Positions 10,928 through 33,455 of a stretch of 64,000 nt of DNA are shown here, one piece after another (the first letter of the stretch is position 1; each line of letters begins with the position of its first letter). The stretch is taken from contig NZ_JAVBIJ010000001.1 of NCBI RefSeq assembly GCF_032193765.1, positions 1,860,001 to 1,924,000 of the forward strand, given 5' to 3'. The notes beneath the pieces were generated by a model. The model was not told the origin of the DNA. It ran no database searches and worked only from the letters and a program-made list of their open reading frames with translations. The translations under genes and the position numbers were made by a program. This DNA comes from Rhodoferax potami. GTDB taxonomy: Bacteria; Pseudomonadota; Gammaproteobacteria; Burkholderiales; Burkholderiaceae_C.

Positions 10928-10989
10928 ATTGTACTTTGTTAAAATCTCACCGACTTATGGGCATCGCCCATTGAATAATTGAACTATTT

Positions 10990-12126
10990 ATGCGATGCAA
11001 CTCTAGGAAGTTGATTTTCTTTGTAGCCGTGGACTGGTTTTTTTGCTCCCACTTTTTGGAGCGGGCCAAAGCAGCACAAAATGTTGGCTATGAAGTAGTT
11101 GTAGTCACGTCGATTGAGAGGCATCGTTCGAATATTGCAGATGCAGGATTACGTGTTATCGACTTAGGCATTGATCGCCGAAGCTTAGGTCTTATATCTG
11201 CTTTTAGAACAGTAAAGCAATTAGTTACTATCTTCAAAGAAGAAAATCCCGATATCCTTCACCAAGTGGCTATCAAACCCATTTTGCTGGGGGGGATTGC
11301 GGCGCGTATTGCTGGTGTACAGCGAGTAGTTAATGCTGTTGTTGGAGGCGGCTACACCTATACATCTACGTCGCCCTTTATGCCATTTCTTCGTTCAGTT
11401 ATTGGAGTAGCTATGCGCTTACTCCTGAATCCACCAAGGAGCTGTGTTGTCTTCGAAAACAGGGACGATATGGCCCTGTCCATCAAATCACGACAGGTAC
11501 ACCCGAACGCTGCGGTACTTATTAGGGGTGCAGGAGTCAATCTCAATCTTTACCCAAACCGATCGACTACAAACTCAACTCCATTGGTCGTGGTACCTGC
11601 AAGGTTATTGTGGGATAAGGGTCTCGGCGAATTTGTCGCGGCAGCGCGCTTGCTACGCAATCGTAAAGTCAACGCCCGTTTTGTGATCGCTGGGGGCGAG
11701 GACACTGACAACCGGGCCAGTATCCCCCCTGCTGTATTGGCGCAATGGAAGACTGAAGCAGATGTTGAACTTTGGGGTTTCTGCTCAAATATGCCTCAAG
11801 TACTGGAACAAGCAGATATCGTCTGCTTGCCGTCTTACAGAGAAGGCTTGCCAAAGGCTCTGTTAGAAGGTATGGCCGCTGGGTTACCATGCGTGACGAC
11901 CAATGTGCCGGGATGTCGTGAGGCTGTAATTGACGGGAAAAATGGTTTGTTGGTTCCCCCCAGGGATTATCAAGCCTTGGCTGACGCCTTGCATCGGTTG
12001 ATCTTGAATCCTCAACTACGCCTCCAAATGGGTAATCGAGGTAGATCCATGGCAGCGACCGAATTCGCTTCGTCGATCGTCTGCCTGCAGACACTACAGG
12101 TTTATGAAAGACTCCTTCAATCATGA
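10990..12126 (+). CDS. GT4 family glycosyltransferase
   Basis: This 378-aa GT-B protein resembles GT4 enzymes that act just after the initiating step. The N-terminal half has FFVAVDWFFCSHFLERAKAA, ILHQVAIKPILLGGIAAR and VVNAVVGGGYTYTS (about 113-126). The donor domain has VPARLLWDKGLGEFVAAARL, an ADIVCLPSYREGLPKALLEG motif (about 276-295) with the conserved EGLPK glutamate, and AAGLPCVTTNVPGCREAV. It overlaps the epimerase gene by 4 bp (ATGA). This order, GT4, epimerase, sugar-phosphate transferase, CapD, is a common O-antigen module. Confidence 0.88.
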   Translation: MRCNSRKLIFFVAVDWFFCSHFLERAKAAQNVGYEVVVVTSIERHRSNIADAGLRVIDLGIDRRSLGLISAFRTVKQLVTIFKEENPDILHQVAIKPILLGGIAARIAGVQRVVNAVVGGGYTYTSTSPFMPFLRSVIGVAMRLLLNPPRSCVVFENRDDMALSIKSRQVHPNAAVLIRGAGVNLNLYPNRSTTNSTPLVVVPARLLWDKGLGEFVAAARLLRNRKVNARFVIAGGEDTDNRASIPPAVLAQWKTEADVELWGFCSNMPQVLEQADIVCLPSYREGLPKALLEGMAAGLPCVTTNVPGCREAVIDGKNGLLVPPRDYQALADALHRLILNPQLRLQMGNRGRSMAATEFASSIVCLQTLQVYERLLQS

Positions 12127-13055
12127 GGGTACTGATCACAGGAGCATCCGGATTTGTAGGTCAGGCAGTCGCAAAAGCATTGAGCCATAAAGGCCATGAA
12201 ATAGTCCGCGCAGTTCGTAAGGAACAGGCAGATGCAGTGGTGGTTGGAAACATTGGACCAGAAACGAATTGGGAAGAACCCTTAAAAAAGTGCGGAGTGG
12301 TGATCCATCTGGCAGCTCGCGTGCACGTGATGAACGAGAAGAGCTCAGACCCGATGACTGAGTTTCGCCGTGTAAATGTCGAAGGGACCGCCGTACTTGC
12401 ACGACAGGCTGCTGCTGCTGGGGTGAAGCGCTTCATCTTTTTGAGTTCTATCAAAGTAAACGGCGAATATTCAGAATCGGGACAACCCTTCACAGCCAAC
12501 GATGCGCCCCGGCCGGAGGACCCATATGGAATTTCCAAATACGAGGCAGAAAAAATACTCCAGGCGATTGCTTCTGAAACGGGCATGGAAGTTGTGATTA
12601 TTCGTCCGCCGTTGGTGTACGGACCTGGGGTGAAAGCCAACTTTGAATCTATGATGCACTGGTTGTCTATGGGTCTTCCGATCCCACTAGCTGCGATAAC
12701 TAAAAATCGCCGAAGCTTGGTGGCTCTAGACAACCTCGTGCACTTGATAATGACTTGTTTGAACAGTCCTAACGCCGCAAATCAAACGTTTCTGGTATCT
12801 GACGGTGAAGACCTTTCAACAGCTCAATTACTTGAGCGCATGGGGGCCGAAATGGGAAAACCTGCACGCCTGTTTTATCTGCCATCTGCGCTGTTAAAGC
12901 TGGGCACAATACTTTTGAACCGACCAAGCACCTATCAGCGTCTATGCGGCTCATTGCAGCTCGACATTACAAAAACCCGACAATTATTGGGCTGGACCCC
13001 GCCAGTGTCGGTGCAAGAGGGTCTGCGTCGCGCAGCTGAGGGCTACCGCCTATGA
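12123..13055 (+). CDS. NAD-dependent sugar epimerase (WbpV/GnE-like SDR)
   Basis: This 310-aa extended SDR protein has the Rossmann motif VLITGASGFVGQAVA (GxxGxxG, residues 3-17), a FIFLSSIKVNGE segment carrying the catalytic Ser, the YGISKYEAEK catalytic YxxxK pair (about 137-146) and the RPPLVYGPG substrate loop. Relatives next to a PglC/WbpL-type transferase epimerise UDP-HexNAc or reduce UDP-4-keto-6-deoxy-HexNAc at C4; which applies here is not decidable. It would act downstream of the CapD-like dehydratase at 13652 to make the first sugar nucleotide. It is coupled to both neighbours by 4-bp overlaps. Confidence 0.82.
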   Translation: MRVLITGASGFVGQAVAKALSHKGHEIVRAVRKEQADAVVVGNIGPETNWEEPLKKCGVVIHLAARVHVMNEKSSDPMTEFRRVNVEGTAVLARQAAAAGVKRFIFLSSIKVNGEYSESGQPFTANDAPRPEDPYGISKYEAEKILQAIASETGMEVVIIRPPLVYGPGVKANFESMMHWLSMGLPIPLAAITKNRRSLVALDNLVHLIMTCLNSPNAANQTFLVSDGEDLSTAQLLERMGAEMGKPARLFYLPSALLKLGTILLNRPSTYQRLCGSLQLDITKTRQLLGWTPPVSVQEGLRRAAEGYRL

Positions 13056-13612
13056 AACGTTTGACTGACCTGACACTAGCGCTCATCGCGGCTATGTTAC
13101 TGGCTCTGCCTATAGCGCTGCTGGCGCTAAGCATCCGACTCACTTCCCCCGGACCCGCACTCTATTGGAGCGACCGAATGGGTCGACACAATAAGATTTT
13201 CAAAATGCCCAAATTCCGCAGCATGCGCATCGACACCCCAGTGGTAGCCACACACCTGCTGCATCAACCAGAACTGTATCTCACACCCATAGGCTCTTTT
13301 TTGCGCAAATCGAGTATGGACGAACTGCCTCAGCTATGGAGCATTCTGAAGGGAGATATGAGTTTCGTTGGCCCGCGCCCAGCGCTCTTCAACCAAGAGG
13401 ATCTGATAGGCCTCCGCACGGAAAAGGGTGTGCATGAACTAATGCCCGGTTTGACTGGGTGGGCTCAAGTCAATGGCCGGGATGAAATCCCAATCTCACA
13501 AAAAGTGCAATTTGACTTGGAATATTTAAAGCATCAGTCTCTATCTTTCGACATGAAGATACTTTGGATGACGCTGTTGAAGGTTGTAGCAAGGGATGGA
13601 GTGTCACATTGA
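13052..13612 (+). CDS. PglC-like initiating phosphoglycosyltransferase
   Basis: This 186-aa monotopic sugar-phosphate transferase moves a sugar-1-phosphate to undecaprenyl phosphate, starting the repeat unit. It has one N-terminal hydrophobic re-entrant helix (about residues 7-30), then TSPGPALYWSDRMGRHNKIF and KMPKFRSM, the catalytic-region sequence SSMDELPQLWSILKGDMSFV followed by GPRP (about 89-112, including the DE pair of this superfamily), and the PGLTGWAQVNGRDE segment. The short form matches PglC/WbpL-partner enzymes rather than the long WbaP type. Overlap with the epimerase indicates coupled synthesis. Confidence 0.9.
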   Translation: MKRLTDLTLALIAAMLLALPIALLALSIRLTSPGPALYWSDRMGRHNKIFKMPKFRSMRIDTPVVATHLLHQPELYLTPIGSFLRKSSMDELPQLWSILKGDMSFVGPRPALFNQEDLIGLRTEKGVHELMPGLTGWAQVNGRDEIPISQKVQFDLEYLKHQSLSFDMKILWMTLLKVVARDGVSH

Positions 13613-18470: not shown

Positions 18471-20054
18471 CCATGGTTCGGATGGCTTGGCACGTTAGTC
18501 GAGGTGTATCAATTCCTCACCGCGTTTGCGTGTCATTTTCATACTGCGCGTGACATTTGGTCCGGTCTCGGCCGTTGCCGGTGGCGGCGTCTCCAATGCC
18601 GGCCGTCCCCGTCTGCCCACCCGGTTAATGGTTGCCTTGCTGTACCTCAAGCATGCGTTCAATGAGAGCGACGAGGACGTGATCCAGCGCTGGGGTGAGA
18701 CCCCCACTTGGCAGTACTTTTCTGGCAACGAATACTTTGAACACCAGTGGCCGTGCGACCCGACACAACTGGGGCGCTTTCGTAAAGCTCTGGGCGAAGA
18801 AGGCGTGGAAGAACTGCTGGCCCGCACCATGGAAGTGGCGGTCACCCTCAAGCTGATTGCCAAGAAAGAATTGACCCGCATGATCGTGGACTCCACGGTG
18901 CAAGAAAAAGCTGTGGCACATCCCACCGACAGCAAGCTGCTGGAGACCGCCCGATCCAAGGTGGTCGAGTTGGCCAAAGCCAATGGCATCGAGCTCAAAC
19001 AGACCTACGCCAAAGAAGGCCAACTGCTGGGCTACAAGGCTGGGCGCTATGCCCATGCCCGCCAGTTCAAGCGCATGCGCAAAGCCATCAAACGCCAGCG
19101 CACCATCGTTGGACGGCTGCAGCGCGAGGTGGCTCGCAAGATGACCACGCTCAGCCAAGCCATACAAGAGACCTTGGGCCAGACCTTGGACAAGGCCAAA
19201 CGCTTGGTCACGCAGACCGGCAGTCGCAAGGCAGTGGACAACCGCGCCAAGCTCTACAGCTGGCATGCGCCCGAGGTGGAGTGCATCTCAAAAGGCAAGA
19301 GCCGCAATCCGTACGAGTTCGGCGTGAAGGTGGGTCTGGCCATGACGCTCAAGGGCAATTTGATCGTGGGAGCCAGGAGCTTTCCCGGTAACCCGTATGA
19401 CGGGCACACCATGCACGAGCAGATCGAGCAAAGCGCTATCCTGATGCAAGGCTTGGGGGTCAAGCCCGAGGTGGTGTACGCAGACTTGGGCTACCGGGGT
19501 GTGGACAAAGACAACCCGGACATTGAGATCAAACACCGGGGCAAGGACAAGCGGTTGACCGATGAAGAGCGCAGACTGCTCAAACGGCGCCAAGCGATCG
19601 AGCCGATCATCGGGCACCTCAAAGCGGATCACCGCATGGACCGCTGCCACCTCAAAGGCTCAGCAGGCGATGCACTGCACGCGGTGCTGTGCGCGGCGGG
19701 CTACAACATCCGCTGGCTGCTGCGGATGATCGCCCGGAAAGGCCTGGGCCTTTTGTTGTGCCTGCTGCAGGTGAGCGGTTTGACGGGCTTGTTTGAGAAA
19801 TTGGCCAAAATCATCGGCCTCAACCGACTGCAAGGCTCAGATCGGCGCTGGGGGGTGGCTTGAAGTGAATTTTGCAGGGACGACTAGCTACCTAATGCGA
19901 GCTGCTTTTCTTTCCCGTCAATCCGGTACTTCAAAAACCAGCGCTTAGACCCCATGGGGCTGACCTGTAGGTACATACCACCCAAATCTGCAAACCTAGC
20001 TTGCTTTTTGTCTGCCGGGCACACGGCGTTTTTGCACTGCACATCAGTCAGCAT

Positions 20055-20095
20055 GGGGGTACGGCTCCCAATGGGGGTACGGTTTTTGGGGGTAC
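20055..20095. repeat. GGGGGTAC direct repeats upstream of the integrase start
   Basis: GGGGGTAC occurs at 20055-20062, 20073-20080 and 20088-20095, immediately before the start codon of the split integrase. C-runs of opposite sense follow to 20145. Short spaced repeats beside an integrase gene are often arm-type binding sites for that integrase; that role here is an inference. Confidence 0.45.
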
Positions 20096-20151
20096 AGGGT
20101 CAAAATCCCCCCGTTTTTCCGGAATCTCCCCCCATTTGCACCCCCGCTTTA

Positions 20152-21770
20152 GTTGTCCCTGCAAAACCCCTGCAACCCGCATGAACGCTTGTGATCTGGG
20201 GTGATTCCGGATGGTCAGAACTCTCAAATAGATATTCAATGGAGTCTGTTTTCTGGGAGTTTTTGAAAGCAGCGCCATGACCGATGACTTTTTCCGCAAC
20301 CGCCTGGATCAGATGATCGATTTGCGCCACCCTCTGGCGGTGCTTGCTAACCGCATGCCTTGGCAAGAGATCGAAGCCTCCCTCGTCCAGCGCTGGGCAC
20401 GCCAGGTCAAGTCTGGCAAGAAGATAGAAGACTTGGACTTGTTTGGTCCGGTCTCGGCCGTTGCCGGTGGCGGCGTCTCCAATGCCGGCCGTCCCCGTCT
20501 GCCCACCCGGTTAATGGTTGCCTTGCTGTACCTCAAGCATGCGTTCAATGAGAGCGACGAGGACGTGATCCAGCGCTGGGGTGAGACCCCCACTTGGCAG
20601 TACTTTTCTGGCAACGAATACTTTGAACACCAGTGGCCGTGCGACCCGACACAACTGGGGCGCTTTCGTAAAGCTCTGGGCGAAGAAGGCGTGGAAGAAC
20701 TGCTGGCCCGCACCATGGAAGTGGCGGTCACCCTCAAGCTGATTGCCAAGAAAGAATTGACCCGCATGATCGTGGACTCCACGGTGCAAGAAAAAGCTGT
20801 GGCACATCCCACCGACAGCAAGCTGCTGGAGACCGCCCGATCCAAGGTGGTCGAGTTGGCCAAAGCCAATGGCATCGAGCTCAAACAGACCTACGCCAAA
20901 GAAGGCCAACTGCTGGGCTACAAGGCTGGGCGCTATGCCCATGCCCGCCAGTTCAAGCGCATGCGCAAAGCCATCAAACGCCAGCGCACCATCGTTGGAC
21001 GGCTGCAGCGCGAGGTGGCTCGCAAGATGACCACGCTCAGCCAAGCCATACAAGAGACCTTGGGCCAGACCTTGGACAAGGCCAAACGCTTGGTCACGCA
21101 GACCGGCAGTCGCAAGGCAGTGGACAACCGCGCCAAGCTCTACAGCTGGCATGCGCCCGAGGTGGAGTGCATCTCAAAAGGCAAGAGCCGCAATCCGTAC
21201 GAGTTCGGCGTGAAGGTGGGTCTGGCCATGACGCTCAAGGGCAATTTGATCGTGGGAGCCAGGAGCTTTCCCGGTAACCCGTATGACGGGCACACCATGC
21301 ACGAGCAGATCGAGCAAAGCGCTATCCTGATGCAAGGCTTGGGGGTCAAGCCCGAGGTGGTGTACGCAGACTTGGGCTACCGGGGTGTGGACAAAGACAA
21401 CCCGGACATTGAGATCAAACACCGGGGCAAGGACAAGCGGTTGACCGATGAAGAGCGCAGACTGCTCAAACGGCGCCAAGCGATCGAGCCGATCATCGGG
21501 CACCTCAAAGCGGATCACCGCATGGACCGCTGCCACCTCAAAGGCTCAGCAGGCGATGCACTGCACGCGGTGCTGTGCGCGGCGGGCTACAACATCCGCT
21601 GGCTGCTGCGGATGATCGCCCGGAAAGGCCTGGGCCTTTTGTTGTGCCTGCTGCAGGTGAGCGGTTTGACGGGCTTGTTTGAGAAATTGGCCAAAATCAT
21701 CGGCCTCAACCGACTGCAAGGCTCAGATCGGCGCTGGGGGGTGGCTTGAAGTGAATTTTGCAGGGACGAC
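20152..21770 (+). mobile_element. IS5-like element, copy C (intact, 1,619 bp)
   Basis: The terminal repeats and length match copy A, and a 6-bp duplication GCTTTA flanks it (20146-20151 and 21771-21776). It inserted in the region upstream of the P4-type integrase gene, about 100 bp from its start codon. Copies B and C now bracket only the integrase N-terminus, about 270 bp. Confidence 0.95.
20277..21749 (+). CDS. IS5-like DDE transposase (copy C)
   Basis: This 490-aa protein is identical in amino-acid sequence to copy A at 1434-2906, with the InsH-type N-terminal domain and all three catalytic positions (IVDSTVQEK, VYADLGYRG, RQAIEPIIGHLK). The frame is intact and the position within the element is the same, so it is the second potentially active source of transposase for the family in this window. 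Confidence 0.93.
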   Translation: MTDDFFRNRLDQMIDLRHPLAVLANRMPWQEIEASLVQRWARQVKSGKKIEDLDLFGPVSAVAGGGVSNAGRPRLPTRLMVALLYLKHAFNESDEDVIQRWGETPTWQYFSGNEYFEHQWPCDPTQLGRFRKALGEEGVEELLARTMEVAVTLKLIAKKELTRMIVDSTVQEKAVAHPTDSKLLETARSKVVELAKANGIELKQTYAKEGQLLGYKAGRYAHARQFKRMRKAIKRQRTIVGRLQREVARKMTTLSQAIQETLGQTLDKAKRLVTQTGSRKAVDNRAKLYSWHAPEVECISKGKSRNPYEFGVKVGLAMTLKGNLIVGARSFPGNPYDGHTMHEQIEQSAILMQGLGVKPEVVYADLGYRGVDKDNPDIEIKHRGKDKRLTDEERRLLKRRQAIEPIIGHLKADHRMDRCHLKGSAGDALHAVLCAAGYNIRWLLRMIARKGLGLLLCLLQVSGLTGLFEKLAKIIGLNRLQGSDRRWGVA

Positions 21771-22140
21771 GCTTTAGAGTAGCAGTCAATAGAGCGCTTT
21801 GTACTACGCTGCACTGTAAGTGCTTGATTTCCCAAAGAAAAAGGCCACTAACTATCTCTAGCTAGCGGCCTTTGTCAGAGGTAATGGTGGTGGGTGGTTG
21901 ACCACTCGGGAACTTTCTATTCGCACTCAATCATGCTAGCGGCTACTAGAGCGTGAATGCGAGGTAGAGACTTAGACCCAACCGATGTGGAAATCTTACA
22001 TCGACACACGTCACCGACACAAGTTCAAATCCGGTCGAGGGAATTGAACTCCAATCCACCGCTTGACTGCTCCCGGTAATGTAGACAAGCCTGCCCTCTC
22101 CAGTCTAAGCTTTGTCGGGTCAACTGCTGCCCCCTGCCTA
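21771..22140. other. non-coding stretch between IS copies
   Basis: There is no supportable protein gene. It contains the terminator-like hairpin listed separately and scattered tRNA-like phrases (for example GTTCAAATCC on + and GTTCCCGAGTGG on -) that do not fold into a cloverleaf. Because P4-type integrases usually sit beside a tRNA or tmRNA target, this may be the decayed attachment region of the older element; that is inference. Confidence 0.4.
21833..21873 (-). terminator. rho-independent terminator-like hairpin (minus strand)
   Basis: On the minus strand AAAGGCC pairs with GGCCTTT, and an inner CTAGCT pairs with AGTTAG (one wobble) around a 6-base loop, followed by the T-rich run TTCTTT. 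The + strand version has a poorer T tract. It would end leftward transcription entering from beyond 21.9 kb, where no gene is now recognisable. Confidence 0.6.
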
Positions 22141-22283
22141 TGTCAAACGCAGTTTCGATTTGATACAGCTGTCGAACGCAAACGCGGCATGGATTTGATA
22201 CACCGTTGTGTGGGGCGATTGTCTGTTTTGTCTTTGCTTGTCTTTCAAGCAGTCAGTGGCTCGCCACTGACTGCTTGGCGCCC

Positions 22284-24193
<1,910 letters not shown>

Positions 24194-24217
24194 CCATGGT
24201 TCGGATGGCTTGGCACG

Positions 24218-24307
24218 TTAGTCGAGGTGTATCAATTCCTCACCGCGTTTGCGTGTCATTTTCATACTGCGCGTGACATTGCCATTGAGAGTGAGTTTGA
24301 ATTTCAT
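24218..24307 (-). pseudogene. phage gene truncated by IS21 after nine codons
   Basis: An ATG at 24307 overlaps the preceding gene's stop as ATGA, the pattern used throughout this operon. It begins MKFKLTLNG before entering the IS21 right end at 24278. The frame then runs through IS sequence to a TAA at 24218. Only the first nine codons are phage DNA, so the original product is unknown. It shows that the phage operon once continued leftward. Confidence 0.7.
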
Positions 24308-24513
24308 GCCAGGAGCTCCTCGAATGCGATTGGATATGCCTCGCGAAATACCTGCGCAGGATCTGCGCCAGCCATCGTCTTGAGGTTAAAAACATGACGA
24401 CCGGAGACCTTTCCATCGGGATTAGTCACCAGCACCGTCATGCGCAGATTGCTGTCATCGAGCTGGACGACATCGACGTCATAGCCAGGCCGGGTTTGCA
24501 GATTCAGATTCAT
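24304..24513 (-). CDS. small phage protein of unknown function
   Basis: This 69-aa protein is coupled to the oxygenase-like gene upstream by an ATGA overlap. It shows a hydrophilic start (MNLNLQTRPGYDVDVVQLDD) and a beta-rich middle (LRMTVLVTNPDGKVSGRHVF), ending in a short helix. No cysteine is present and I recognise no family. Its position at the end of the fibre-oxygenase operon suggests a function linked to that module. Confidence 0.6.
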   Translation of the reverse strand: MNLNLQTRPGYDVDVVQLDDSNLRMTVLVTNPDGKVSGRHVFNLKTMAGADPAQVFREAYPIAFEELLA

Positions 24514-25187
24514 GAGATCTCTCCTTTAAGCTCGGTGTAGAGGTCAACATAGTTGTGCGAGGCCACCCGCAGGGTGACCACCAGAAGGGTTCGCTCCCCC
24601 TTAGCGTTGAAGGGATTGGTTTCGTGCCAGAGGCGCGAGGGATGCAGGACAACCAGGCCTGGTTCGGTTTCGATGTAGTGAACCTTTTCCCAAAATGGAA
24701 ACCCCGCCATCGGGCGGGGGTCCTGCAAGATGAGTTCACCGTCACCGACGGTCCAGTCGCGTGCGCTGGGAGGACTTCGCCCCTGACCGCAGTCCAGGTA
24801 CAGGCACAGCACATGGTCACAGGTATGGTGGTAATGGGGCTGCGCGCGCATGCCAGGCTGGTAGTGCACGGGGATGCAGCGCGCCTCGATCCTGAGATCC
24901 CTGGCATTGCGCACCCCATGTGCTCCCAGCAGGTAGTCGCGGTAGGTGTCTTCCACCCAACGCCGAAACCGATGCCAGACCGGGGGCGCATGCGATTCAT
25001 GCTCGGCATGAAACAGGTTCAGCTGCACGCGCAGCCGCACATCCACATCCGGCAACCCGTGCTCGGGCGGGTTAGCCTTATGGTTATGAAACCGCTCGAC
25101 AGTGAAGCGCCGAAGCGCATCCATCTCGTCAGGCGTCCAGGGCGCGGTGTCTTTCAGGACCGGGGTGGGCCACAGGTAGTCAATCAA
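24510..25187 (-). CDS. Fe(II)/2-oxoglutarate-oxygenase-like protein, third of three
   Basis: This 225-aa protein resembles the 2OG-FeII_Oxy_5 group (PF13759-like). The candidate iron and co-substrate residues are His in AQPHYHHTCDH (about 140), His in HPSRLWHETNPF (about 203) and Arg in GERTLLVVTLR (about 211), on a cupin-like strand pattern with GDGELILQDPRP between. The acidic member of the HxD/E motif is not clear. The start is a TTG at 25187 overlapping the previous stop (TTGA); a longer frame upstream lies in the previous gene and reads as nonsense. Substrate unknown; free metabolite, protein or glycan are all possible. Confidence 0.6.
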   Translation of the reverse strand: MIDYLWPTPVLKDTAPWTPDEMDALRRFTVERFHNHKANPPEHGLPDVDVRLRVQLNLFHAEHESHAPPVWHRFRRWVEDTYRDYLLGAHGVRNARDLRIEARCIPVHYQPGMRAQPHYHHTCDHVLCLYLDCGQGRSPPSARDWTVGDGELILQDPRPMAGFPFWEKVHYIETEPGLVVLHPSRLWHETNPFNAKGERTLLVVTLRVASHNYVDLYTELKGEIS

Positions 25188-25786
25188 GTTGCACCTCCCG
25201 ATCCCGACCCGACACCCACCTCCGAACCAAAAGCCACCGCGATGCGCAGAGCGTTGCAGTAACGGGACATGGGACGCGCGGCATGCGCCATGCAGCCATT
25301 GAGCTCCACCATCCGATTTGGTTTGACCAGCACGGCTGACTCGATCTCGCCCTGTGCATCGAGCACGACCAGGTCCCCGCCCCAGCCCGGATCCCACTCG
25401 GCCACGGGGTACCAGATCACGGATCTGGCCGTTTGCAGGAATTCGGCCGGGAAGTCCCTGTGCAGCGATGCCTCGTCGCCGAAGGCCTGCACATTGACCC
25501 ATAGCCGTGTTATCGAGCTGTCAGGAAAAAAGCGCTCCTTGACCTGCTGCGCTGCCATCGCCATGGGACCACCTCGGGCCACAAACGCATCGAACGTCAG
25601 CTCCGGACGCCAGGCCCCCGGGTCGTAGTGGTGCTTGCGGGTGCCAGGCAGCACGAAGTTGCGATGCCAGAACACACCAGGGGCTTCAGTATGGGCCTTC
25701 CAGCCGAACACCAGGGTCTGGCTCAGCAACCACTGCCGACACTCGGAGGCCAGCTCCGGTGAAATCAGGTCGTCAACTATGCGCAT
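25184..25786 (-). CDS. Fe(II)/2-oxoglutarate-oxygenase-like protein, second of three
   Basis: This 200-aa protein has the clearest dioxygenase signature of the three. An HxD motif is in EASLHRDFPAEF (about residue 109), the distal His in LNGCMAHAARPMSR (about 167) and the 2OG-binding Arg in CNALRIAVAFGS (about 180). Between them lies VIWYPVAEWDPGWGGDLVVL, the double-stranded beta-helix pattern of prolyl-4-hydroxylase-like enzymes. The start ATG 25786 has GGAG six bases upstream; a start at 25813 lacks this. It differs in subfamily from its two neighbours, so the trio is not a simple tandem duplication. Confidence 0.75.
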   Translation of the reverse strand: MRIVDDLISPELASECRQWLLSQTLVFGWKAHTEAPGVFWHRNFVLPGTRKHHYDPGAWRPELTFDAFVARGGPMAMAAQQVKERFFPDSSITRLWVNVQAFGDEASLHRDFPAEFLQTARSVIWYPVAEWDPGWGGDLVVLDAQGEIESAVLVKPNRMVELNGCMAHAARPMSRYCNALRIAVAFGSEVGVGSGSGGAT

Positions 25787-26372
25787 GGTGTTCTCCGGGA
25801 ATAGCTTCAACACGGAACTCGAAATGGATTTCCACGCTTGCTCGCGTGCCGTTGTAGGGGTAAGAGTGGTGGGCCAGATAGCTTGGGAACACCAGCAGCA
25901 TCCCGGGCTTGGGATGTATGATTTCCGATCGCCAGCCTTCCCATGGCAACCTGCGGCTGCCGTAGGCGCCGCTGGGGTTGATCAACACAAAAGCCCCGGA
26001 ATAGTCCTGCCGCGCCGGATCAGGTTTGGCATCGCCATCTACCCAGTAAATGGCCGACAGGTCCGTGTCTTCGGCATGCAGCGGGATGAATTGCCCAGGC
26101 TGGGTGATCACCTCACGGGCTGTTTGCCAGACAGGAACGCAGCTAAAGGTTTGCTCGATGGCCGCATGAACCCGAACCATGAGTGGGTCCAAGGCATCAG
26201 GCCAAGTGGTGTTTCCGATGAGCGACTCTCGGCTCTTTCGCGCCCAGGGTTGTCCATCCCGATTGAGCCTTTCATGAAATCCCATGGCAACTTCGATCAT
26301 TTGATCGCGCTGTACATCACCGAGGTGCAGGTATCCCTGGAAGATCCTTGCAGAAAACAGTTCGCGGATCAT
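25773..26372 (-). CDS. Fe(II)/2-oxoglutarate-oxygenase-like protein, first of three
   Basis: This 199-aa protein starts at ATG 26372, overlapping the previous stop as ATGA. It resembles PF13759-type oxygenases: the metal motif candidate is HAE in QFIPLHAEDTDLSAIYWVDG (about 105-124), with SGAFVLINPSG following, then PKPGMLLVFPSYLAHHSYPY with the distal His, and Arg in NGTRASVEIHFEF (about 181). Such genes occur in tailed phages but their substrates are mostly unknown. It lies directly after a virion protein gene and two genes after a Cys/Asn-rich fibre gene. Confidence 0.7.
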   Translation of the reverse strand: MIRELFSARIFQGYLHLGDVQRDQMIEVAMGFHERLNRDGQPWARKSRESLIGNTTWPDALDPLMVRVHAAIEQTFSCVPVWQTAREVITQPGQFIPLHAEDTDLSAIYWVDGDAKPDPARQDYSGAFVLINPSGAYGSRRLPWEGWRSEIIHPKPGMLLVFPSYLAHHSYPYNGTRASVEIHFEFRVEAIPGEHHAHS

Positions 26373-27175
26373 GAAAGCGTCACCTGCGCGTCGGCGCATC
26401 CGGGGTAGAACTTAAAGCCAGCCTTGAGGCGCACTGTGTCGCCTGCTGCAAGTCCCGTGGTCAGGACCGTTGCGGTTGTGGTGCCACTCTGTGTCTGGCG
26501 ACGGCTGATGGGCAGGTAGCCATTGATGCTTTCGAGGAACACTTCCGCATCGCGGGTGCTCACGTCACCAATGCCATCGAGCATGTGGACCGTAAACACG
26601 GCCGGATCTCCTGCTTTCACAGATGTTGGGGCCGTGACCCGCAGGTCCGGGAACTGCATTTCACGCACCTGAGCCGAGGACTGGTAGTCGGTCTGCTCCA
26701 CATCCGAAGAATCAACCCCTTCGACCAGGCAGCCACCGAGCGTCGGATGCAGATTCACTGTGACAAAGCACTCGTCAAACGGGCTGTCAGCAAAAGGCAC
26801 ATTGAAACCGGTCAGAAAGTTGCCGTTCCAGACATGCCCGGCAGCCTCAGGCGCGGTGAACCGCGTGGACAGTGTGTAGACGTACAGCGGCAAGGGGTCG
26901 ATGAGGCGTTTTTCTGCCCAGCGGTAACCCGTCATGAAGGACTGGCGATCGGACCAGCCTCGGTTGTTGCGCAGTTCGCGATAAGTGAAAACCTGCTCTG
27001 CCACCACCTGGTAGGAGTTGCCATTGACTTCAAAGTCTGGGGTCAGTCCCGAATCAGGCCTGTGACGCAAACCAAAACGCATGCGTACCTGCTCGGCGGT
27101 CTTGTCGATCAGGAGATGGATGGCGTAGTCCAGTGTGGTCGAGAGCTTGCCAGCGCGCACAAGAAAGACTTTCAT
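26369..27175 (-). CDS. probable virion protein with C-terminal Ig-like domain
   Basis: The product is 268 aa when started at ATG 27175, which has AAGGAG six bases upstream; the longer frame would read through the Cys-rich end of the preceding gene and is rejected. The N-terminal two thirds (MKVFLVRAGKLSTTLDYAIH onward) are unfamiliar. The last 75 residues (RVTAPTSVKAGDPAVFTVHM, later EVFLESINGYLPISRR and DTVRLKAGFKF) have the look of a bacterial Ig-like or Big fold common on phage tails. Placement between the Cys/Asn fibre and the oxygenases suggests a tail-surface component. Confidence 0.55.
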   Translation of the reverse strand: MKVFLVRAGKLSTTLDYAIHLLIDKTAEQVRMRFGLRHRPDSGLTPDFEVNGNSYQVVAEQVFTYRELRNNRGWSDRQSFMTGYRWAEKRLIDPLPLYVYTLSTRFTAPEAAGHVWNGNFLTGFNVPFADSPFDECFVTVNLHPTLGGCLVEGVDSSDVEQTDYQSSAQVREMQFPDLRVTAPTSVKAGDPAVFTVHMLDGIGDVSTRDAEVFLESINGYLPISRRQTQSGTTTATVLTTGLAAGDTVRLKAGFKFYPGCADAQVTLS

Positions 27176-27186
27176 GTGCATCTCCT

Positions 27187-28197
27187 TCAGCAGCAACCAC
27201 AACAGGCACAGTTGCAATTGCAATTTGTGCGGCAGTTGAAGGCCGTGTTGCCGCAGTTGCAGTTGGTGTAGCTGCCACAGTTGCAGTTGCAATTGCAGGC
27301 TCGGTACCAGCGGTGATACTCGCCCCCGCCAATTTCGTCTTGGGCCAGGTAGTAGGCGTCGTAGTTGTAGCCGGTGCTGGGCACAGCGTTGTAGGCGTAA
27401 GTCGTTCCTCCAGCGCCGTCGTATTGGGCCGAGTTGGCACAGTAGTTAAACCCCAAACCCCAGGTCCACCAGTTGGTATTGGAGGGTTTCCAATACGTAT
27501 TGCTTGCGCAGTTTCCTGTCGGCAAGATGCCGTTGCAGTTGCCTGCCAGATCGTCGTAGTACTGGTTGCTGCGTCCCATCTCGCCAATGTCCTGACCATC
27601 GTTCATGCGATAGCCGGTGTTGCGAGCGTTGTCCGCCGCCCCAGACTGTGACGAATAAATCACTGCACCAGTGCCCATGTACAGATGACCTGTCATCGTG
27701 TCACCGGCTTTGGCCAATCGACTCGACAAATCGATTGGTACGGTGGCGTTGCCAGTGGCATCCGGTGCGTTGCCATTGACTGAGCGCACAAAGGCTGTGG
27801 AGTCATAACCATCGAGCTTGTCAGCGTCGGCGGCTTTGGCCGTGATACCCAGGTATGTCGTGTTGTGGTTGTGCCCCAGCGCCGCATATGCGGCATCGTG
27901 GTTGTGTCCACTCAGTGCAAATCCGGTGGAGTCAATGCCGTCCAGCAGATCTGCATTGGCCACCTTGCCCACCGTGGCCGACAGGTCAATGACCATCTTC
28001 CACGTGACGGGACTGACCACGGTGAGGATGTAGAGCTTTTGCTCATCGGTCCTGAAACACGGCATACCCAGCTGCAGATTCACAGTTGGGAATGCCGTTC
28101 CACTGGAGAGTGACAACGCCGTCTTGTCATTGTTCAGGATCTGCGACAGCGAGTCCGAGAGCGTCGTCGTGGAAGGAATTTCGGTGTAGTTTTGCAT
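27187..28197 (-). CDS. tail fibre with Cys/Asn-repeat C-terminus
   Basis: This 336-aa fibre protein has an N-terminal attachment part, then repeated trimeric-fibre motifs: ALSGHNHDAAYAALGHNHNT (HxH motifs that bind metal in other fibres) and ADADKLDGYDSTAFVRS. Residues about 195-300 are Asn/Tyr/Trp/Gly-rich. The final 36 residues hold 14 Cys, mostly as Cys-Asn steps, in three blocks: RACNCNCNCGSYTNCNCG, NTAFNCRTNCNCNC and ACCGCC. Three more Cys lie between about 217 and 253. Such density could mean metal binding, an extensive disulfide or isopeptide-like lattice, or post-translational modification. The latter is worth testing given the oxygenase genes downstream. Confidence 0.75.
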   Translation of the reverse strand: MQNYTEIPSTTTLSDSLSQILNNDKTALSLSSGTAFPTVNLQLGMPCFRTDEQKLYILTVVSPVTWKMVIDLSATVGKVANADLLDGIDSTGFALSGHNHDAAYAALGHNHNTTYLGITAKAADADKLDGYDSTAFVRSVNGNAPDATGNATVPIDLSSRLAKAGDTMTGHLYMGTGAVIYSSQSGAADNARNTGYRMNDGQDIGEMGRSNQYYDDLAGNCNGILPTGNCASNTYWKPSNTNWWTWGLGFNYCANSAQYDGAGGTTYAYNAVPSTGYNYDAYYLAQDEIGGGEYHRWYRACNCNCNCGSYTNCNCGNTAFNCRTNCNCNCACCGCC

Positions 28198-28208
28198 TTA
28201 GTACCCTA

Positions 28209-29399
28209 TCAATACCCTTGGGCAACCCAAGAAATGGCTCCCGTTATGCGGGTTCCAGAGGTGTTTTCAAGAATGGCGGTGAAGCCGGTGGAAGAGACTG
28301 AACCGAGGATTCGGGGAATGGCGATGGTGGTGCCGCCTTTGAAGGTCAACGTGACTTCCGGTGCCACACGAAACTGCCTGGTGAAGACTACGGTCACGCC
28401 ATTGGCGGCTGTGACCACCTGCGCAGTGCCCCGGTCAAAGACATCGGGCACGTCCACCGTCACCCTCAGGCCATCGATGTAGCCACGGTCGGCATTGCTG
28501 GAAGTCAGAATCGCCCTGAAAAGCGCGCGCTGGTAGGTGTAGTCGCCCTGGATGAAATCCCGGAAGTTGGTGTACCCGGGGGGATGACCTGACTCCAGAA
28601 TGTCCATAAAGTCTTGCTCGGTGATCTCGGTGCTGGCAACGATCATGTCGCTGATGACACCATTGGCCCGGCGCCGGTACTGCTCGGCCAAGCTCAGGGC
28701 TTCACTGAGCTTCAGGGTCTGGGCCCGGCGAAACGCCTCGGCGATGGCAAAGCCTTCGCTGATGGCCAACCGATAAGCAACCGTTCGGCCCAGGCTTTCA
28801 GCAAACGAGAAGGCTTCGGCCACCCGTTTGACATTTGAGCGGGCCAGCGCATCACTCATCCCAAAGCTCTCGCTTTGAGGCTTGGTCATGGCCTTGGAAG
28901 GCTTTTCTGCAAAGCTCAGGTTTTCCGCGACGCGCAGGACGTAGGCAATGAGGTCCGTGTAGGTCTCAGCCAGCGCCAGCGTTTCGTACTTGCGCAGGGC
29001 CAGTTGCCTGGCCAGACCTTCGGCCACCTGAAACACCTCGAATACTGCCTTGGTACCGGAGCGGGCGTACTTCTCCGAGAAGGTCAGCGACTCCACAAAG
29101 CGCAGCACAAAGGCGATCAGGTCGGTGTAGGTCTCCACGAAGCTCAGGGTCTCGAACTTGCTGAGAGTGAGCGCCCGGCTGGGCTTTTCAGCCAAGGCCA
29201 GGGTCTCGGAACTTCGCTTGATACCCAGCTTCTGGGCGAGCTCTGCAAAGCTCAGGTCCGTAGCCACGCTCAGCGCGTAGACGGCCGGGTAAGCCGTTGA
29301 CCAGTTCTTGCCTGCCGTGGCACTGCCCCAGGTGAACGTGCCAGAGGTCCAGCTGTAGTTGGCCCCTGGGGAGCTGGAGACGTTGACGGTCTCGGCCAT
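28209..29399 (-). CDS. repeat-containing tail fibre protein
   Basis: This 396-aa protein has about ten imperfect repeats (residues about 62-250) built on E-x-L-x-F-A-E spaced 18 or 20 residues apart, for example ETLALAE, ETLSFVE, ESLTFSE, ENLSFAE and EALSLAE. A longer phrase, ETYTDLIAFVLR / ETYTDLIAYVLR, occurs twice. The C-terminal 60 residues (VTVVFTRQFRVAPEVTLTFK, ending ISWVAQGY) match the terminal receptor-facing domain of many phage tail fibres. The repeats probably form an extended shaft; repeat number may vary between relatives. Confidence 0.7.
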   Translation of the reverse strand: MAETVNVSSSPGANYSWTSGTFTWGSATAGKNWSTAYPAVYALSVATDLSFAELAQKLGIKRSSETLALAEKPSRALTLSKFETLSFVETYTDLIAFVLRFVESLTFSEKYARSGTKAVFEVFQVAEGLARQLALRKYETLALAETYTDLIAYVLRVAENLSFAEKPSKAMTKPQSESFGMSDALARSNVKRVAEAFSFAESLGRTVAYRLAISEGFAIAEAFRRAQTLKLSEALSLAEQYRRRANGVISDMIVASTEITEQDFMDILESGHPPGYTNFRDFIQGDYTYQRALFRAILTSSNADRGYIDGLRVTVDVPDVFDRGTAQVVTAANGVTVVFTRQFRVAPEVTLTFKGGTTIAIPRILGSVSSTGFTAILENTSGTRITGAISWVAQGY

Positions 29400-29945: not shown

Positions 29946-32900
29946 TCAGTACAGCTTGAGCGCCGTGTACCCAGTTGCGGGGAGCAGAGGACTGCTTGCG
30001 CTTTGAACTTCTGCGCCCATCTTTCCGACAAAGAGCCTGCGCTCGGTGGCTGTCTGGCACACGCCAATGCAAACTCGATCGCTCACGTTCACAGGGTATT
30101 GCACTACGATCCGGTTGAACAAGTGGTCTTCCAAAAAGAAGCTACCTGTCACCGCATCAAACCCGACAAGCAAGCTCACTGCGGCTCCAGTAGCTGACCA
30201 GATCACCGAAGTGGTGATCTGGTTCGGGATGAACCAGAAGCTCACATGGAACACCCCCGGAATGCTCACACCCCAGGAGATCCGGGTTGTGTCCTTGATG
30301 AGTACCCCACTGCCGTAGCGACCGTCGCCATAGCTCACACCGACGGCCTCACCGCTGGCGGGACTTCCATAGCCTGCCAGCGCCCCATTGAGACGCCAGC
30401 CATATAGCTCACCCGCCTGCAGCGTGTCTTCGCGCGCCATCTGAAAGCGGGCTTCGATGCTCTTGAGCGCACCGTCGTAGGTCCACTGCCGCTTGGCCGC
30501 ATTGCTGCTCCAGACATAGTTCGTCGTTGACCAGGTCTCTCGATCGTCCAAAGTGGCCCCGATGCTGGCCAGCAGCGTGTTCTGCGCCCGGTAGCTGGTC
30601 GGTAGATTCACCTCGAAGAGGTACTCCGACTGCGTCACCCCGCTGTCCATGCGCAGCACATCCTCACTGTTGACCGACTCGACCGATGCAAAGTGCTTCA
30701 CCCCGGGGAACCGGGTGGCCTGGGCATCGATGGTGACCAGCAGGTTGGCGTTTTGCGGCTGTGCCACCACGGTAGAGACAAAGGTGGCCTCATCGGAATA
30801 GATGCCGGGCGATGCGATCGCCTTGATCCAGAAACTGCGCTCTCCGTCAAAACCGGAGGGCAGTGTGAAGCTGCTGGACTTGACCTCCGCGATGAAGATC
30901 GAGGTGTCCCAGGCCGTGCCTTCGCGCAGCTCATAGGCCACCACCTCGGGCTCGGCATTGGGCAGCCACCGAAACTCCAACCGGTTGGCAGACTGCACCA
31001 CATCGAACTGTCGAACCGCAGCAGGTGCCAGCAGAGTCAACAAAAAAGTGGTGACATGCTGGCTGTACTTGCCCGAGGTGTCGAAGGCCCGGATGAAGTA
31101 GTTGTACTGGCCAGATTCGCTTTGGTCATGCACGAGCTGGGTGCCAGCGGTCTGCCCAACCAGCGTGCCCGCATCCCAGCCCGTGCCCACGCGAACCTCG
31201 TACCCTGCCAGATCGGCATCGGTATTGGCGCTCCAACGAAGTAGCAGATCGGTCGTGCGACGCAGCACCACAAAGTCCTGCACATCGTCGGGCGGCTGCA
31301 ACTTGCCCAAGATGGTTTGACTCAGCGTGGCCGATGCCCCAAGCTTGCCGGACACCCCTATGGCCCGCACGGTGAACACATAGTCCCCAGCGTCGGCGTT
31401 GCGGATCTCCAGATAGGTTGCCGAGACTCGGGGCAGCGTGACGGTGTTGCCACCATTGACCCGGTAGCTCACCTGGTACTCCAGGGCCCCGAAGACTTGC
31501 TCCCAGCCCACCTGAATGAGCACCAGCGCCTGATCCTTGACCCGGTAAAGACTCTCAGTGAGTGTGAGACCCGTAGGGGCCACCGGCGTAGTTGAAAGCA
31601 CCGTGATGTCGCGCGGCTGCAGTGCCAGCCCACGCTCGATTGCGTCGTACTTGCTCGGGTTATGGGCCAGTGCCGTGACCTCATGGACGCCTGGCTCGCT
31701 CTCCGCGATCTGCACCACCCTAAACAGTTGCGTCTCCACTTGGGTGGAGGCCAGCACCCAGATGGCACCCACCTGAGGTGCCAAAGAGAATGCGGTGGTC
31801 ACACCAACCGTTCGGCCAGACAGGGATCCGACTTGGCGTTCCTCCACCGCGCCCGTGGACAGCAGCACTGAGATGCGCCACGAACCGGCGGGAAGGTCCT
31901 GGTCCAGCGTGACGCTTACCGTGGTTGCCGCAGCGATGCGTCCACCCAAGCGTAGGCCACCCCGGCTGCTGTCTGCAACCTTGATAACATCGCCGGGACG
32001 AACAACAGCGCCTTCCAGCCCCGTGCGGAAAGTGATGATTTCCGATTCGGACTGCTCCGAATACAGCAGCCACTTGCCGACCCGGTTGGCCTGGCCCCGT
32101 GACGTGCAGCCCATGGCCACCACATCGGCCTGCACCACGCCATAACGTGCAATGCCTACCATGTCTTCGACGTATTCCACCTTCTGGCGGTAGAAATCAT
32201 CAGGGTCCACCCAGCTGACCAGAGCCACGGTGTGCCTAGCCTTGGCGGACGATCCTTGGTAGGCGAACTCGCCACCCAGAACATTTGCAGCCGTGAATTG
32301 GTAGACAGGATCCTGGGGCGCATCCTGCGTGACAGTGATTGCTCCGCCAGACCAATAAGCCATGCCCCGAAAGATCGAGGCCATGTCTTGCACCACCTTG
32401 TAGGCCTGCTCTCGGCTTTGCAGGTACAGGTTGCAGGTAAAGCGCGGCTCATAGCCGCCCAGCCCATTGGGGACAAGCTCGTCACAGTAGCGGGCCACCC
32501 GGTACAGCGCCCACTTGTCCACCTGCGACTCGGGAATGAAACTGCCCAGCCCGTAGCGTGTGTTTGTCACCAGGTCATAGAAACACCAGGCAGGGTTGTC
32601 CGTCCAGGCCACCTTGAAGGTTCCGTCCCAAACCCCGGCATACGAGCGGGTCTCGGGAAAGTAGTTCGAGGGAATCCGAACGCGCAGGAGTTTGAGGTCA
32701 TAGCTGCGCCGAGGAATTGAGGTGAACTGAGAGGCATCCACCCGCAGGGCCATCAGGGCGCTGTTGGGGTAGCGCAGCTTGCTCTCGATGACCTCGGTGT
32801 AGGACTCCAGAAACGTCTTGTTCTGCAGGCTGGTCTGGGTCGAGTCGGCAGTGATGCGGCGCAGACGCACATCCCAGGGGCCAGTGCCAGTCAAAGGGAT

Positions 32901-33455
32901 GTAGTAACTGCGCTGGTAGCGTGAGGTGGTCTTGCCGGACACCGTGTCCGCCAGAACCTGCACATACCCGGCTCCGCGCGCCTGCACGTCGATCGCGTAG
33001 CTGACCGAGGTTCCGTTGAGGTCTCCGTTGGTGGTGTCTTGCAGCGTCAGGGTCGGGATGCTGACCTTGATGCGCACGGCATCCACATCAGGGTCGTTGA
33101 TGGATCGCACCACCGGCTGGTTGGCCTTGCATTCAACCCCCACGGCTACCTCGTTTTCAACTGAGGAAAAGCCGGGGATGTAGCTTTGCTGCTGGGTGCC
33201 GGGTCGGGTTTCGAGCGTGACGCCAGTGAAGTTGTAGCTGCCGTCAGGGTTCTTGATGGGGGTGTCATCCAGGTACACCGACTGCAGGCCAGCGGCCAGC
33301 CCTTCAATTTCCCCCTCGCAGACCAGGTCCACCACCCGGGCATAAGCCTTGGAGCGCAGACTGTCCGGCGCTTCCTGCGCCACACGGGCGCTGCCGCCTC
33401 CACCCTTGCCGCCACCGCCTGCGCCAATGATCAATCCAGACTCAGGGGTGTTCAT
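29946..33455 (-). CDS. host-specificity/tail tip protein (lambda gpJ-like)
   Basis: This 1,169-aa protein is the central tail-tip fibre that in lambda contacts the receptor and closes the tail tube. It begins with a glycine-rich stretch (IGAGGGGKGGGGSARVAQEA), then the gpJ core with SKAYARVVDLVCEGEIEGLA and KTFLESYTEVIESKLRYPNS. The fibronectin-type III-like modules follow (about residues 615-900), then a C-terminal receptor-binding region, the variable part in this family. It overlaps gpI by 4 bp. Length and position match lambda J. Confidence 0.9.
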   Translation of the reverse strand: MNTPESGLIIGAGGGGKGGGGSARVAQEAPDSLRSKAYARVVDLVCEGEIEGLAAGLQSVYLDDTPIKNPDGSYNFTGVTLETRPGTQQQSYIPGFSSVENEVAVGVECKANQPVVRSINDPDVDAVRIKVSIPTLTLQDTTNGDLNGTSVSYAIDVQARGAGYVQVLADTVSGKTTSRYQRSYYIPLTGTGPWDVRLRRITADSTQTSLQNKTFLESYTEVIESKLRYPNSALMALRVDASQFTSIPRRSYDLKLLRVRIPSNYFPETRSYAGVWDGTFKVAWTDNPAWCFYDLVTNTRYGLGSFIPESQVDKWALYRVARYCDELVPNGLGGYEPRFTCNLYLQSREQAYKVVQDMASIFRGMAYWSGGAITVTQDAPQDPVYQFTAANVLGGEFAYQGSSAKARHTVALVSWVDPDDFYRQKVEYVEDMVGIARYGVVQADVVAMGCTSRGQANRVGKWLLYSEQSESEIITFRTGLEGAVVRPGDVIKVADSSRGGLRLGGRIAAATTVSVTLDQDLPAGSWRISVLLSTGAVEERQVGSLSGRTVGVTTAFSLAPQVGAIWVLASTQVETQLFRVVQIAESEPGVHEVTALAHNPSKYDAIERGLALQPRDITVLSTTPVAPTGLTLTESLYRVKDQALVLIQVGWEQVFGALEYQVSYRVNGGNTVTLPRVSATYLEIRNADAGDYVFTVRAIGVSGKLGASATLSQTILGKLQPPDDVQDFVVLRRTTDLLLRWSANTDADLAGYEVRVGTGWDAGTLVGQTAGTQLVHDQSESGQYNYFIRAFDTSGKYSQHVTTFLLTLLAPAAVRQFDVVQSANRLEFRWLPNAEPEVVAYELREGTAWDTSIFIAEVKSSSFTLPSGFDGERSFWIKAIASPGIYSDEATFVSTVVAQPQNANLLVTIDAQATRFPGVKHFASVESVNSEDVLRMDSGVTQSEYLFEVNLPTSYRAQNTLLASIGATLDDRETWSTTNYVWSSNAAKRQWTYDGALKSIEARFQMAREDTLQAGELYGWRLNGALAGYGSPASGEAVGVSYGDGRYGSGVLIKDTTRISWGVSIPGVFHVSFWFIPNQITTSVIWSATGAAVSLLVGFDAVTGSFFLEDHLFNRIVVQYPVNVSDRVCIGVCQTATERRLFVGKMGAEVQSASSPLLPATGYTALKLY

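What the first reader, a model, noticed from the sequence alone, without database searches (positions are those of the whole stretch)
24218..27175. Three coupled Fe(II)/2-oxoglutarate-oxygenase-like genes after the tail-fibre genes
Sequence shows three consecutive genes (26372-25773, 25786-25184, 25187-24510) joined by overlaps ATGA, 14 bp and TTGA, plus a further coupled small gene and a truncated one. The middle protein has a clear HxD...H...R set and the outer two look like the PF13759-type group, so they are not simple duplicates. Single oxygenases of this kind are known in phages (established); a trio in a siphophage fibre operon beside a Cys/Asn-rich fibre is unusual to me. Inference: they may hydroxylate a virion protein or host surface molecule, or work in series on one substrate.
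Basis: partly seen in the sequence, partly recalled or inferred. Interest (0 to 1): 0.8.

Follow-up and report, generated by a model that had tools for sequence, protein, structure and literature searches.

The report
Enzyme-modified cysteine tip on phage fibres
This prophage carries a tail fibre ending in a strange cysteine-asparagine repeat, next to genes for enzymes of the kind that chemically remodel small natural-product peptides, suggesting that some phages build the tips of their fibres with the sort of chemistry bacteria use on peptide antibiotics.

Summary
The three oxygenase genes are real, but they are an optional layer of a larger module. The fibre gene upstream ends in a Cys/Asn repeat (CNCNCNCG...CCGCC). 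The "truncated gene" after the trio is the first nine codons of a radical-SAM/SPASM (rSAM) enzyme gene cut off by an IS21-like element; relatives carry it whole. Motif-first: 37 of 39 C-terminal CNCNCNC proteins with 3 kb downstream have the rSAM (controls 0 of 53). Enzyme-first: 53 of 65 have an upstream Cys tail (controls 0 of 65 and 1 of 65). Neutral anchor: 33 of 34 have both, 1 neither. In sets not chosen by oxygenase, 44 of 106 tail+rSAM loci have one to three of the OxyA-C types. Three scanned members of the rSAM family sit beside YcaO proteins typical of RiPP clusters. Best reading: RiPP-type maturation of a phage fibre tip, probably Cys-Asn thioether bridging plus hydroxylation. The enzyme-tail link rests on gene association among partly related loci; chemistry and function are inferred. 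Ten paper searches in an open-licence library found no report of it.

The parts
27187..28197 (-). Tail-fibre gene (336 aa); first 174 residues homologous to the fibre of Achromobacter phage JWF
   Evidence: lies downstream of the tail genes 29946-33455 and 28209-29399. Fibre role is inferred from position and homology
27190..27297 (-). Cys/Asn-repeat C-terminal tail of the fibre (last 36 codons, CNCNCNCG...CCGCC): proposed substrate
   Evidence: last 45 codons have 0 non-synonymous and 9, 4, 11 synonymous changes vs L204, L242, L004, and 1 and 14 vs L003
26369..27175 (-). hyp5: conserved partner, not an evident enzyme, with an Ig-like C-terminal domain (residues 175-268)
   Evidence: present in 78 of 125 tail+rSAM loci
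25773..26372 (-). OxyA, 2OG-Fe(II) oxygenase (PF13759; H99 and H168 invariant, E/D at 101 in 16 of 17 rows)
25184..25786 (-). OxyB, 2OG-Fe(II) oxygenase, prolyl-hydroxylase-like fold (H109-x-D111, H168, R181); best named family FlmC
24510..25187 (-). OxyC, 2OG-Fe(II) oxygenase (PF13759; H118, H120, H188 invariant in 14 rows)
24304..24513 (-). Small coupled gene (69 aa), function unknown; found beside the rSAM in close relatives and in the second prophage
24280..24307 (-). Remnant (first nine codons) of the radical-SAM/SPASM gene
22139..24279 (-). IS21-like element (ends approximate; istA 24193-23108, istB 23111-22284) that ends the rSAM gene
   Evidence: named from gene order and recalled IS21 anatomy. 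The one rSAM match in the genome is elsewhere

Best explanation
The genes form a fibre-tip maturation cassette. The fibre is made on ribosomes with a Cys/Asn-repeat C-terminus. A radical-SAM/SPASM enzyme, encoded beside it in relatives and broken in this prophage, modifies that repeat, most likely by linking Cys sulphur to a carbon of nearby Asn/Asp (thioether bridges, as ranthipeptide enzymes and QhpD do). One to three 2OG-Fe(II) oxygenases, here OxyA, B and C, hydroxylate residues of the same tail or of the fibre. hyp5 may hold the fibre for the enzymes or be part of the tip. The result would be a rigid covalent tip for receptor binding or membrane contact. Shown: gene content, enzyme families, active-site residues, OxyB fold, reciprocal co-occurrence, purifying selection, some relatives in RiPP-type clusters. 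Inferred: that the tail is the substrate, the bond type, the order of steps, and the role of the tip.
For: Motif-first: 44 of 59 proteins with CNCNCNC within 40 residues of the C-terminus have the rSAM in the fragment, 37 of the 39 with at least 3 kb downstream; in all 44 it is on the same strand, -22 to +2878 bp from the fibre stop, in 8 within 22 bp; controls 0 of 53, internal motifs 1 of 8. Enzyme-first in named genomes: 53 of 65, controls 0 of 65 and 1 of 65; 26 of 34 after thinning at 70% identity. Neutral anchor (upstream tail genes): 33 of 34 both, 1 neither; the one has a fibre with a 65% identical first 74 residues and an ordinary C-terminus. The rSAM has CxxxCxxC in 34 of 34 representatives plus seven cysteines in 32-34 of 34, and passes the SPASM model in 3 of 3. 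Three members of the family sit beside YcaO+nitroreductase proteins. The same genome has a second prophage with its own Cys/Asn fibre and an intact rSAM. OxyB's best NCBIfam name is FlmC; FlmE/OhkG is named there as an rSAM/SPASM peptide maturase (that the two form one system is my inference from the names). A Cys-Asn thioether made by an rSAM is reported for NxxcA (PMC8326336, passage); QhpD makes Cys-Asp/Glu thioethers inside a protein subunit (PMC5682303, passage).
Against: No mass spectrum or structure of any such fibre was available. 12 of 65 enzyme-first loci lack a tail by my rule: L238 has the repeat in peptides too short for the rule; eight belong to no-tail groups (seven in two places on the tree, L234 an 86% copy of L228); L180, L219 and L236 are unexplained. 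No named maturase family among the best 25 shown per protein reaches its cut-off, so the chemistry cannot be read off. In this prophage the rSAM is broken, so its own tail can be matured only if the second prophage's enzyme acts in trans (untested). Most motif-first loci show no OxyA-C type (35 of 43). The enzyme set does not always follow the tail: SVRYNFNC tails occur with none, with A and with B+C. The whole fibre is conserved (rough dN/dS 0.035-0.073), so the tail is not singled out by selection alone. Many loci are related; counts are not independent events, and the 53 motif controls are not fibre loci.
Confidence: 0.72

Rival explanations
1. The enzymes modify something else made in the same operon (hyp5, another virion protein) or a host surface molecule, and the Cys/Asn tail is a partner or reader rather than the substrate.
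For: hyp5 is present in 78 of 125 loci, and here the first oxygenase is coupled to hyp5 rather than to the fibre.
Against: hyp5 was not detected in 47 of 125 loci (divergent ones may be missed), and in 13 of 131 loci, duplicates included, nothing was called between fibre and rSAM. The tail is what the loci share: 99 distinct tails. The rSAMs score best against peptide maturases.
Confidence: 0.12
2. The tail is modified by the rSAM, but the chemistry is different: for example epimerisation at every second residue giving an alternating D/L helix, or another Cys- or Asn-derived group.
For: The every-second-residue Cys pattern (X in CXC is Asn in 314 of 434) would suit an enzyme acting on alternate residues; rSAM epimerases of that habit (PoyD type) are recalled, not looked up.
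Against: The family has SPASM-type cysteines and its best NCBIfam hits include thioether- and cyclophane-forming maturases. YydG entries, whose epimerase activity is recalled, are weaker profile hits in the PDB (1.3e-7).
Confidence: 0.1
3. The Cys/Asn tail is an unmodified metal-binding or disulfide tip, and the enzymes are unrelated cargo genes that travel with it.
For: Cys-rich repeats can bind metal without enzymes (general knowledge); PHROGs files phrog_81 oxygenases as moron genes; radical-SAM genes in Campylobacter phages were read as boosting host metabolism (PMC2853527, passages).
Against: Reciprocal association in three designs, and the one anchor locus lacking the tail lacks the rSAM too.
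Confidence: 0.06

Closest known systems
Ranthipeptide RiPPs and their radical-SAM/SPASM maturases (PapB/freyrasin, NxxcA, SCIFF)
   Same: Cys-rich peptide stretch beside an rSAM/SPASM enzyme; NxxcA is reported with a Cys-Asn thioether (PMC8326336, passage); the PapB model matches all seven rSAMs scanned, 4e-15 to 4e-23
   Different: 56-82 bits against PapB's cut-off of 340; the substrate here is the end of a large virion fibre, not a small peptide
QhpD and quinohemoprotein amine dehydrogenase
   Same: An rSAM enzyme making thioether bridges in a protein subunit (PMC5682303, passage); TIGR03906 matches all seven rSAMs scanned, 3e-10 to 4e-20
   Different: Below its cut-off (39-72 of 453 bits); viral, with added oxygenases; no dehydrogenase was seen
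FlmC 2OG oxygenase and FlmE/OhkG rSAM peptide maturase (NCBIfam NF052475, NF052473)
   Same: OxyB matches FlmC (5e-12); one rSAM relative (L238) matches FlmE/OhkG (7e-10)
   Different: 46 of 240 and 38 of 500 bits, so not members; a search for FlmC with 'oxygenase' found no paper
Achromobacter phages JWF and 2-1
   Same: Fibre with homologous N-terminus; an rSAM 46% identical to that of L009; same gene order. JWF is an isolated siphovirus listed as temperate (PMC3899368, passages)
   Different: None of OxyA-C found in the JWF stretch or between fibre and rSAM in either; JWF's Cys repeat is followed by a Hint domain; JWF's rSAM is annotated there as a sulfatase-maturating enzyme
Phage 2OG-Fe(II) oxygenases (phrog_81, PF13759)
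   Same: OxyA and OxyC match by profile
   Different: phrog_81 is filed under moron, auxiliary metabolic gene and host takeover; here the genes sit in a fibre operon
Radical-SAM genes of other phages (Campylobacter CP220/CPt10, Salmonella SPFM)
   Same: Phage-encoded radical-SAM proteins, 11 and 12 per genome in the two Campylobacter phages (PMC2853527, passages; PMC6614189, passages)
   Different: Interpreted there as metabolic; no link to a fibre is made in the passages seen

Membership tests
2OG-Fe(II) oxygenase superfamily (OxyA, OxyB, OxyC) | Profile match | tested here: met
   OxyA and OxyC above the PF13759 cut-off; OxyB just below the PF13640 cut-off, FlmC 5e-12
2OG-Fe(II) oxygenase superfamily (OxyA, OxyB, OxyC) | Metal-binding triad, 2OG-binding Arg | tested here: met
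   OxyB HxD, H, R invariant in 14 of 14 rows. OxyA H99, H168 invariant, E/D at 101 in 16 of 17. OxyC H118, H120, H188 invariant, which of them bind metal not settled
2OG-Fe(II) oxygenase superfamily (OxyB) | Double-stranded beta-helix fold | tested here: met
2OG-Fe(II) oxygenase superfamily (OxyA, OxyC) | Double-stranded beta-helix fold | not tested
   No model made; no solved relative found by sequence at E 0.001
Radical-SAM/SPASM enzymes (partner enzyme in relatives) | CxxxCxxC motif and SPASM domain | tested here: met
   C72, C76, C79 in 34 of 34 representatives; TIGR04085 above cut-off in 3 of 3
Radical-SAM/SPASM enzymes (the copy in this window) | Intact gene | tested here: not met
   Nine codons remain before the IS21-like element
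Ranthipeptide maturase PapB family | Score above the curated cut-off | tested here: not met
   56-82 of 340 bits in seven rSAMs
Ranthipeptides | Non-alpha thioether bond in the product | not testable with these tools
   Needs mass spectrometry
RiPPs | Ribosomal precursor with a modified core and a clustered maturase | tested here: inconclusive
   Precursor and maturase co-occur; modification not shown; leader removal not known, though 3 enzyme-first loci have a Hint-like start right after the repeat
FlmC oxygenases | Score above the curated cut-off | tested here: not met
   46.2 of 240 bits

The most novel reading that the evidence does not exclude
A widespread group of tailed phages and prophages, mostly of Pseudomonadota, builds the tip of its tail fibre by RiPP-type chemistry: a ribosomal Cys/Asn repeat is cross-linked by a radical-SAM/SPASM enzyme and in many cases further hydroxylated by one to three 2OG oxygenases, so that fibre tips carry non-standard covalent structures.
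Probability: 0.65. Interest if true: 0.95.

Novelty: categorically new. Interest (0 to 1): 0.9.

Why it matters
Phage fibres are usually treated as plain polypeptides in predictions of host range and structure. If fibre tips are enzymatically remodelled, such predictions miss the part that touches the host. It would also join two fields, since the same enzyme family is found with phage fibres and beside YcaO proteins of RiPP-type clusters. JWF, an isolated phage with a version lacking the oxygenases, makes it directly testable. Enzymes that act on the end of a large folded protein would also interest those who cross-link peptides.
Full report
What is there. The region 28197-24280 on the - strand is a tightly coupled tail operon of a prophage: fibre (28197-27187), hyp5 (27175-26369), OxyA (26372-25773), OxyB (25786-25184), OxyC (25187-24510), a 69-aa gene (24513-24304) and the first nine codons of a further gene (24307-24280). 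OxyA and OxyC pass the PF13759 cut-off; OxyB is just under PF13640's and matches NCBIfam FlmC at 5e-12, below that family's cut-off.

The truncated gene. Alignments of the window with L002, Limnohabitans sp. Jir72 (L203), a Hylemonella MAG (L204) and a Burkholderiales MAG (L242) all end at window position 24279, at identities of 94.5, 95.6, 80.8 and 91.9%. In these four the gene goes on as a radical-SAM enzyme of about 470 residues. In the window an element with istA and istB genes follows (IS21-like by recalled anatomy). A search of the genome with the rSAM of L002 found one match, a full-length copy 84% identical, about 1 Mb away. It lies in a second prophage with its own Cys/Asn fibre, a hyp5-like gene (5e-10), the small gene, one gene that aligns with OxyC relatives (20% identity to OxyC) and one that looks like an oxygenase only by eye; a relative of the former just misses the PF13759 cut-off and a relative of the latter has no Pfam match. 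OxyC has one copy in the genome.

The fibre tail. The fibre ends in 36 residues of Cys/Asn repeat. Compared with L204, L242 and L004 the last 45 codons have 9, 4 and 11 synonymous and no non-synonymous differences, and with L003 14 and 1. Rough dN/dS over the four pairs is 0.035-0.073 for the whole fibre and 0.09-0.36 for the three oxygenases (simple counting, close relatives). Over 99 distinct tails the residue between two Cys is Asn in 314 of 434 cases, then Asp 38, Ala 37, Gly 17.

Three association tests. In 67 an ORF holds the motif; in 59 it lies within 40 residues of the C-terminus, in 8 further in. Of the 59, 44 have the rSAM; of the 39 with at least 3 kb downstream, 37. The two misses are ORFs of 50 residues (at a contig start) and 61 residues. 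Loci with the motif in no ORF: 0 of 53; internal motifs: 1 of 8. The 53 are an easy control, since they are not fibre loci. (2) Enzyme-first: a scan of named genomes with 20 aligned rSAMs gave 167 relatives, 80 kept. Of the 65 with at least 3 kb upstream, 53 have an upstream same-strand ORF with C.C.C in its last 25 residues or the repeat before a Hint-like start; controls 0 of 65 downstream and 1 of 65 on the other strand; 26 of 34 after thinning at 70% identity. (3) Neutral anchor: relatives of two upstream tail genes (106 and at least 600 found, 80 kept of each) gave 128 newly fetched loci; 79 were too short downstream, 15 duplicates; of 34 scored, 33 have tail and rSAM and 1 neither (L039 and L103, held before, were not scored). 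That one, L319, has a fibre whose first 74 residues are 65% identical, with an ordinary C-terminus. These loci are related, so the numbers are not independent events.

What varies. Among tail+rSAM loci not chosen by an oxygenase, the number of OxyA-C types between fibre and rSAM is: motif-first 0 in 35, 1 in 6, 2 in 1, 3 in 1 of 43; enzyme-first genomes 0 in 25, 1 in 27, 2 in 2, 3 in 7 of 61; JWF and phage 2-1 none. Divergent oxygenases are missed: the second prophage counts as 0. hyp5 is seen in 78 of 125. In the anchor set the enzyme set often goes with the tail type (read): OxyA alone with nine TRYNC tails, A+B with four [AT]NCNCNCNCCGC tails, A+B+C with four CRTNC...ACCGCC tails; but SVRYNFNC tails come with none (L296), with A (L310) and with B+C (L308, L334). 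Collagen repeats are found in the fibres L167, L068 and L107, of ten tail proteins scanned. In JWF the Cys repeat runs straight into a Hint domain, a self-processing fold by recall; L191, L213 and L244 have the same repeat followed by CFPAGT, L213 with a Hint match below cut-off.

The enzymes. The rSAM has CxxxCxxC in 34 of 34 representatives and seven further cysteines in 32-34 of 34, in the SPASM spacing as I recall it; the SPASM model passes in 3 of 3. Named maturase families match below cut-off, PapB at 56-82 of 340 bits in seven proteins. Profile search of the PDB gives radical-SAM proteins, best 8vpo, then sulfatase-maturating enzymes. On a tree of 73 rSAMs the seven rows that I labelled no-tail fall in two places, with tail-bearing rows between (midpoint root, so which way the change went is open). 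Of these, L228, L233 and L240 sit beside a YcaO+nitroreductase protein, L212 near a Peptidase_C39 ABC transporter and an HlyD protein, L223 beside an ABC transporter; by recalled knowledge YcaO and C39 transporters are RiPP-cluster genes. L221 and L224 were not scanned, nor L234, an 86% copy of L228. OxyB's model aligns with prolyl hydroxylases. hyp5's model (pLDDT 93.5) has an Ig-like domain at 175-268.

How it most likely works. The rSAM acts on the Cys/Asn tail; the oxygenases hydroxylate the tail or the fibre. A Cys-Asn thioether made by an rSAM is reported for NxxcA (PMC8326336, passage), Cys-Asp/Glu bridging inside a protein for QhpD (PMC5682303, passage), and PapB is reported to accept Cys-Xn-Asp with n = 0-6 (PMC9413430, abstract). 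Bond, order and role of the tip are inference. In this prophage the rSAM is broken; whether the second prophage's enzyme serves it is unknown.

Novelty. Each enzyme belongs to a known family, and phage radical-SAM genes are in print, read there as metabolic (PMC2853527 and PMC6614189, passages). The listings, all in an open-licence library, show no report of such modification of a phage fibre, and two rSAM reviews hold no word beginning 'phage'. The papers seen on JWF and on its relative Lumi hold no 'radical' (PMC3899368 and PMC9959647, term searches); the JWF genome paper itself was not seen. I rate the system categorically new, since a virion tip built by RiPP-type enzymes is not, as far as I could find, a described kind; if the chemistry proves to be plain ranthipeptide-type bridging, 'new variant' would also be fair.

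Noticed in passing
L164 (G000:C1:2886000-2905000), 8924-13490: A second prophage in the same genome has its own Cys/Asn fibre, intact rSAM, one OxyC-like gene and one gene that looks like an oxygenase by eye.
   Followed up: partly
L228:3391-5691, L233:3233-5674, L240:3342-5753: rSAM relatives in Variovorax and Ramlibacter sit beside YcaO+nitroreductase fusion proteins, possibly unstudied RiPP clusters.
   Followed up: partly
L238:3327-3791: Bradyrhizobium hipponense has two peptides of under 80 residues ending in the same kind of repeat (NCACDCNCACGK, CACDCNCNCGK) near this rSAM.
   Followed up: no
L056:3051-11662 and L134: Viral contigs with four and at least three rSAM-family ORFs beside a short protein ending CNCNCNCNC plus a few residues.
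   Followed up: no
L222, L225, L227, L229-L232, L235, L237: Rhodobacterales loci with a shared tail ([FY]NCNC[AN]CRC), an OxyA-like gene and the rSAM across several genera; not settled whether prophage.
   Followed up: no
L319:12543-14390: In the one anchor phage lacking tail and rSAM, two proteins of about 180 residues with an H...R ending and a desaturase-like protein (both by eye) lie in the same region.
   Followed up: no
window 19740-21763: A transposase gene (20277-21749) and, by eye, an integrase N-terminal fragment (20054-19884); a second copy of the element's end starts at about 19883, so this prophage end is eroded.
   Followed up: no
window 28209-29399: Tail protein with internal repeats (SFAEK/LSEAL type, by eye) and a weak C-terminal H-type lectin match (E 0.0054).
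   Followed up: no
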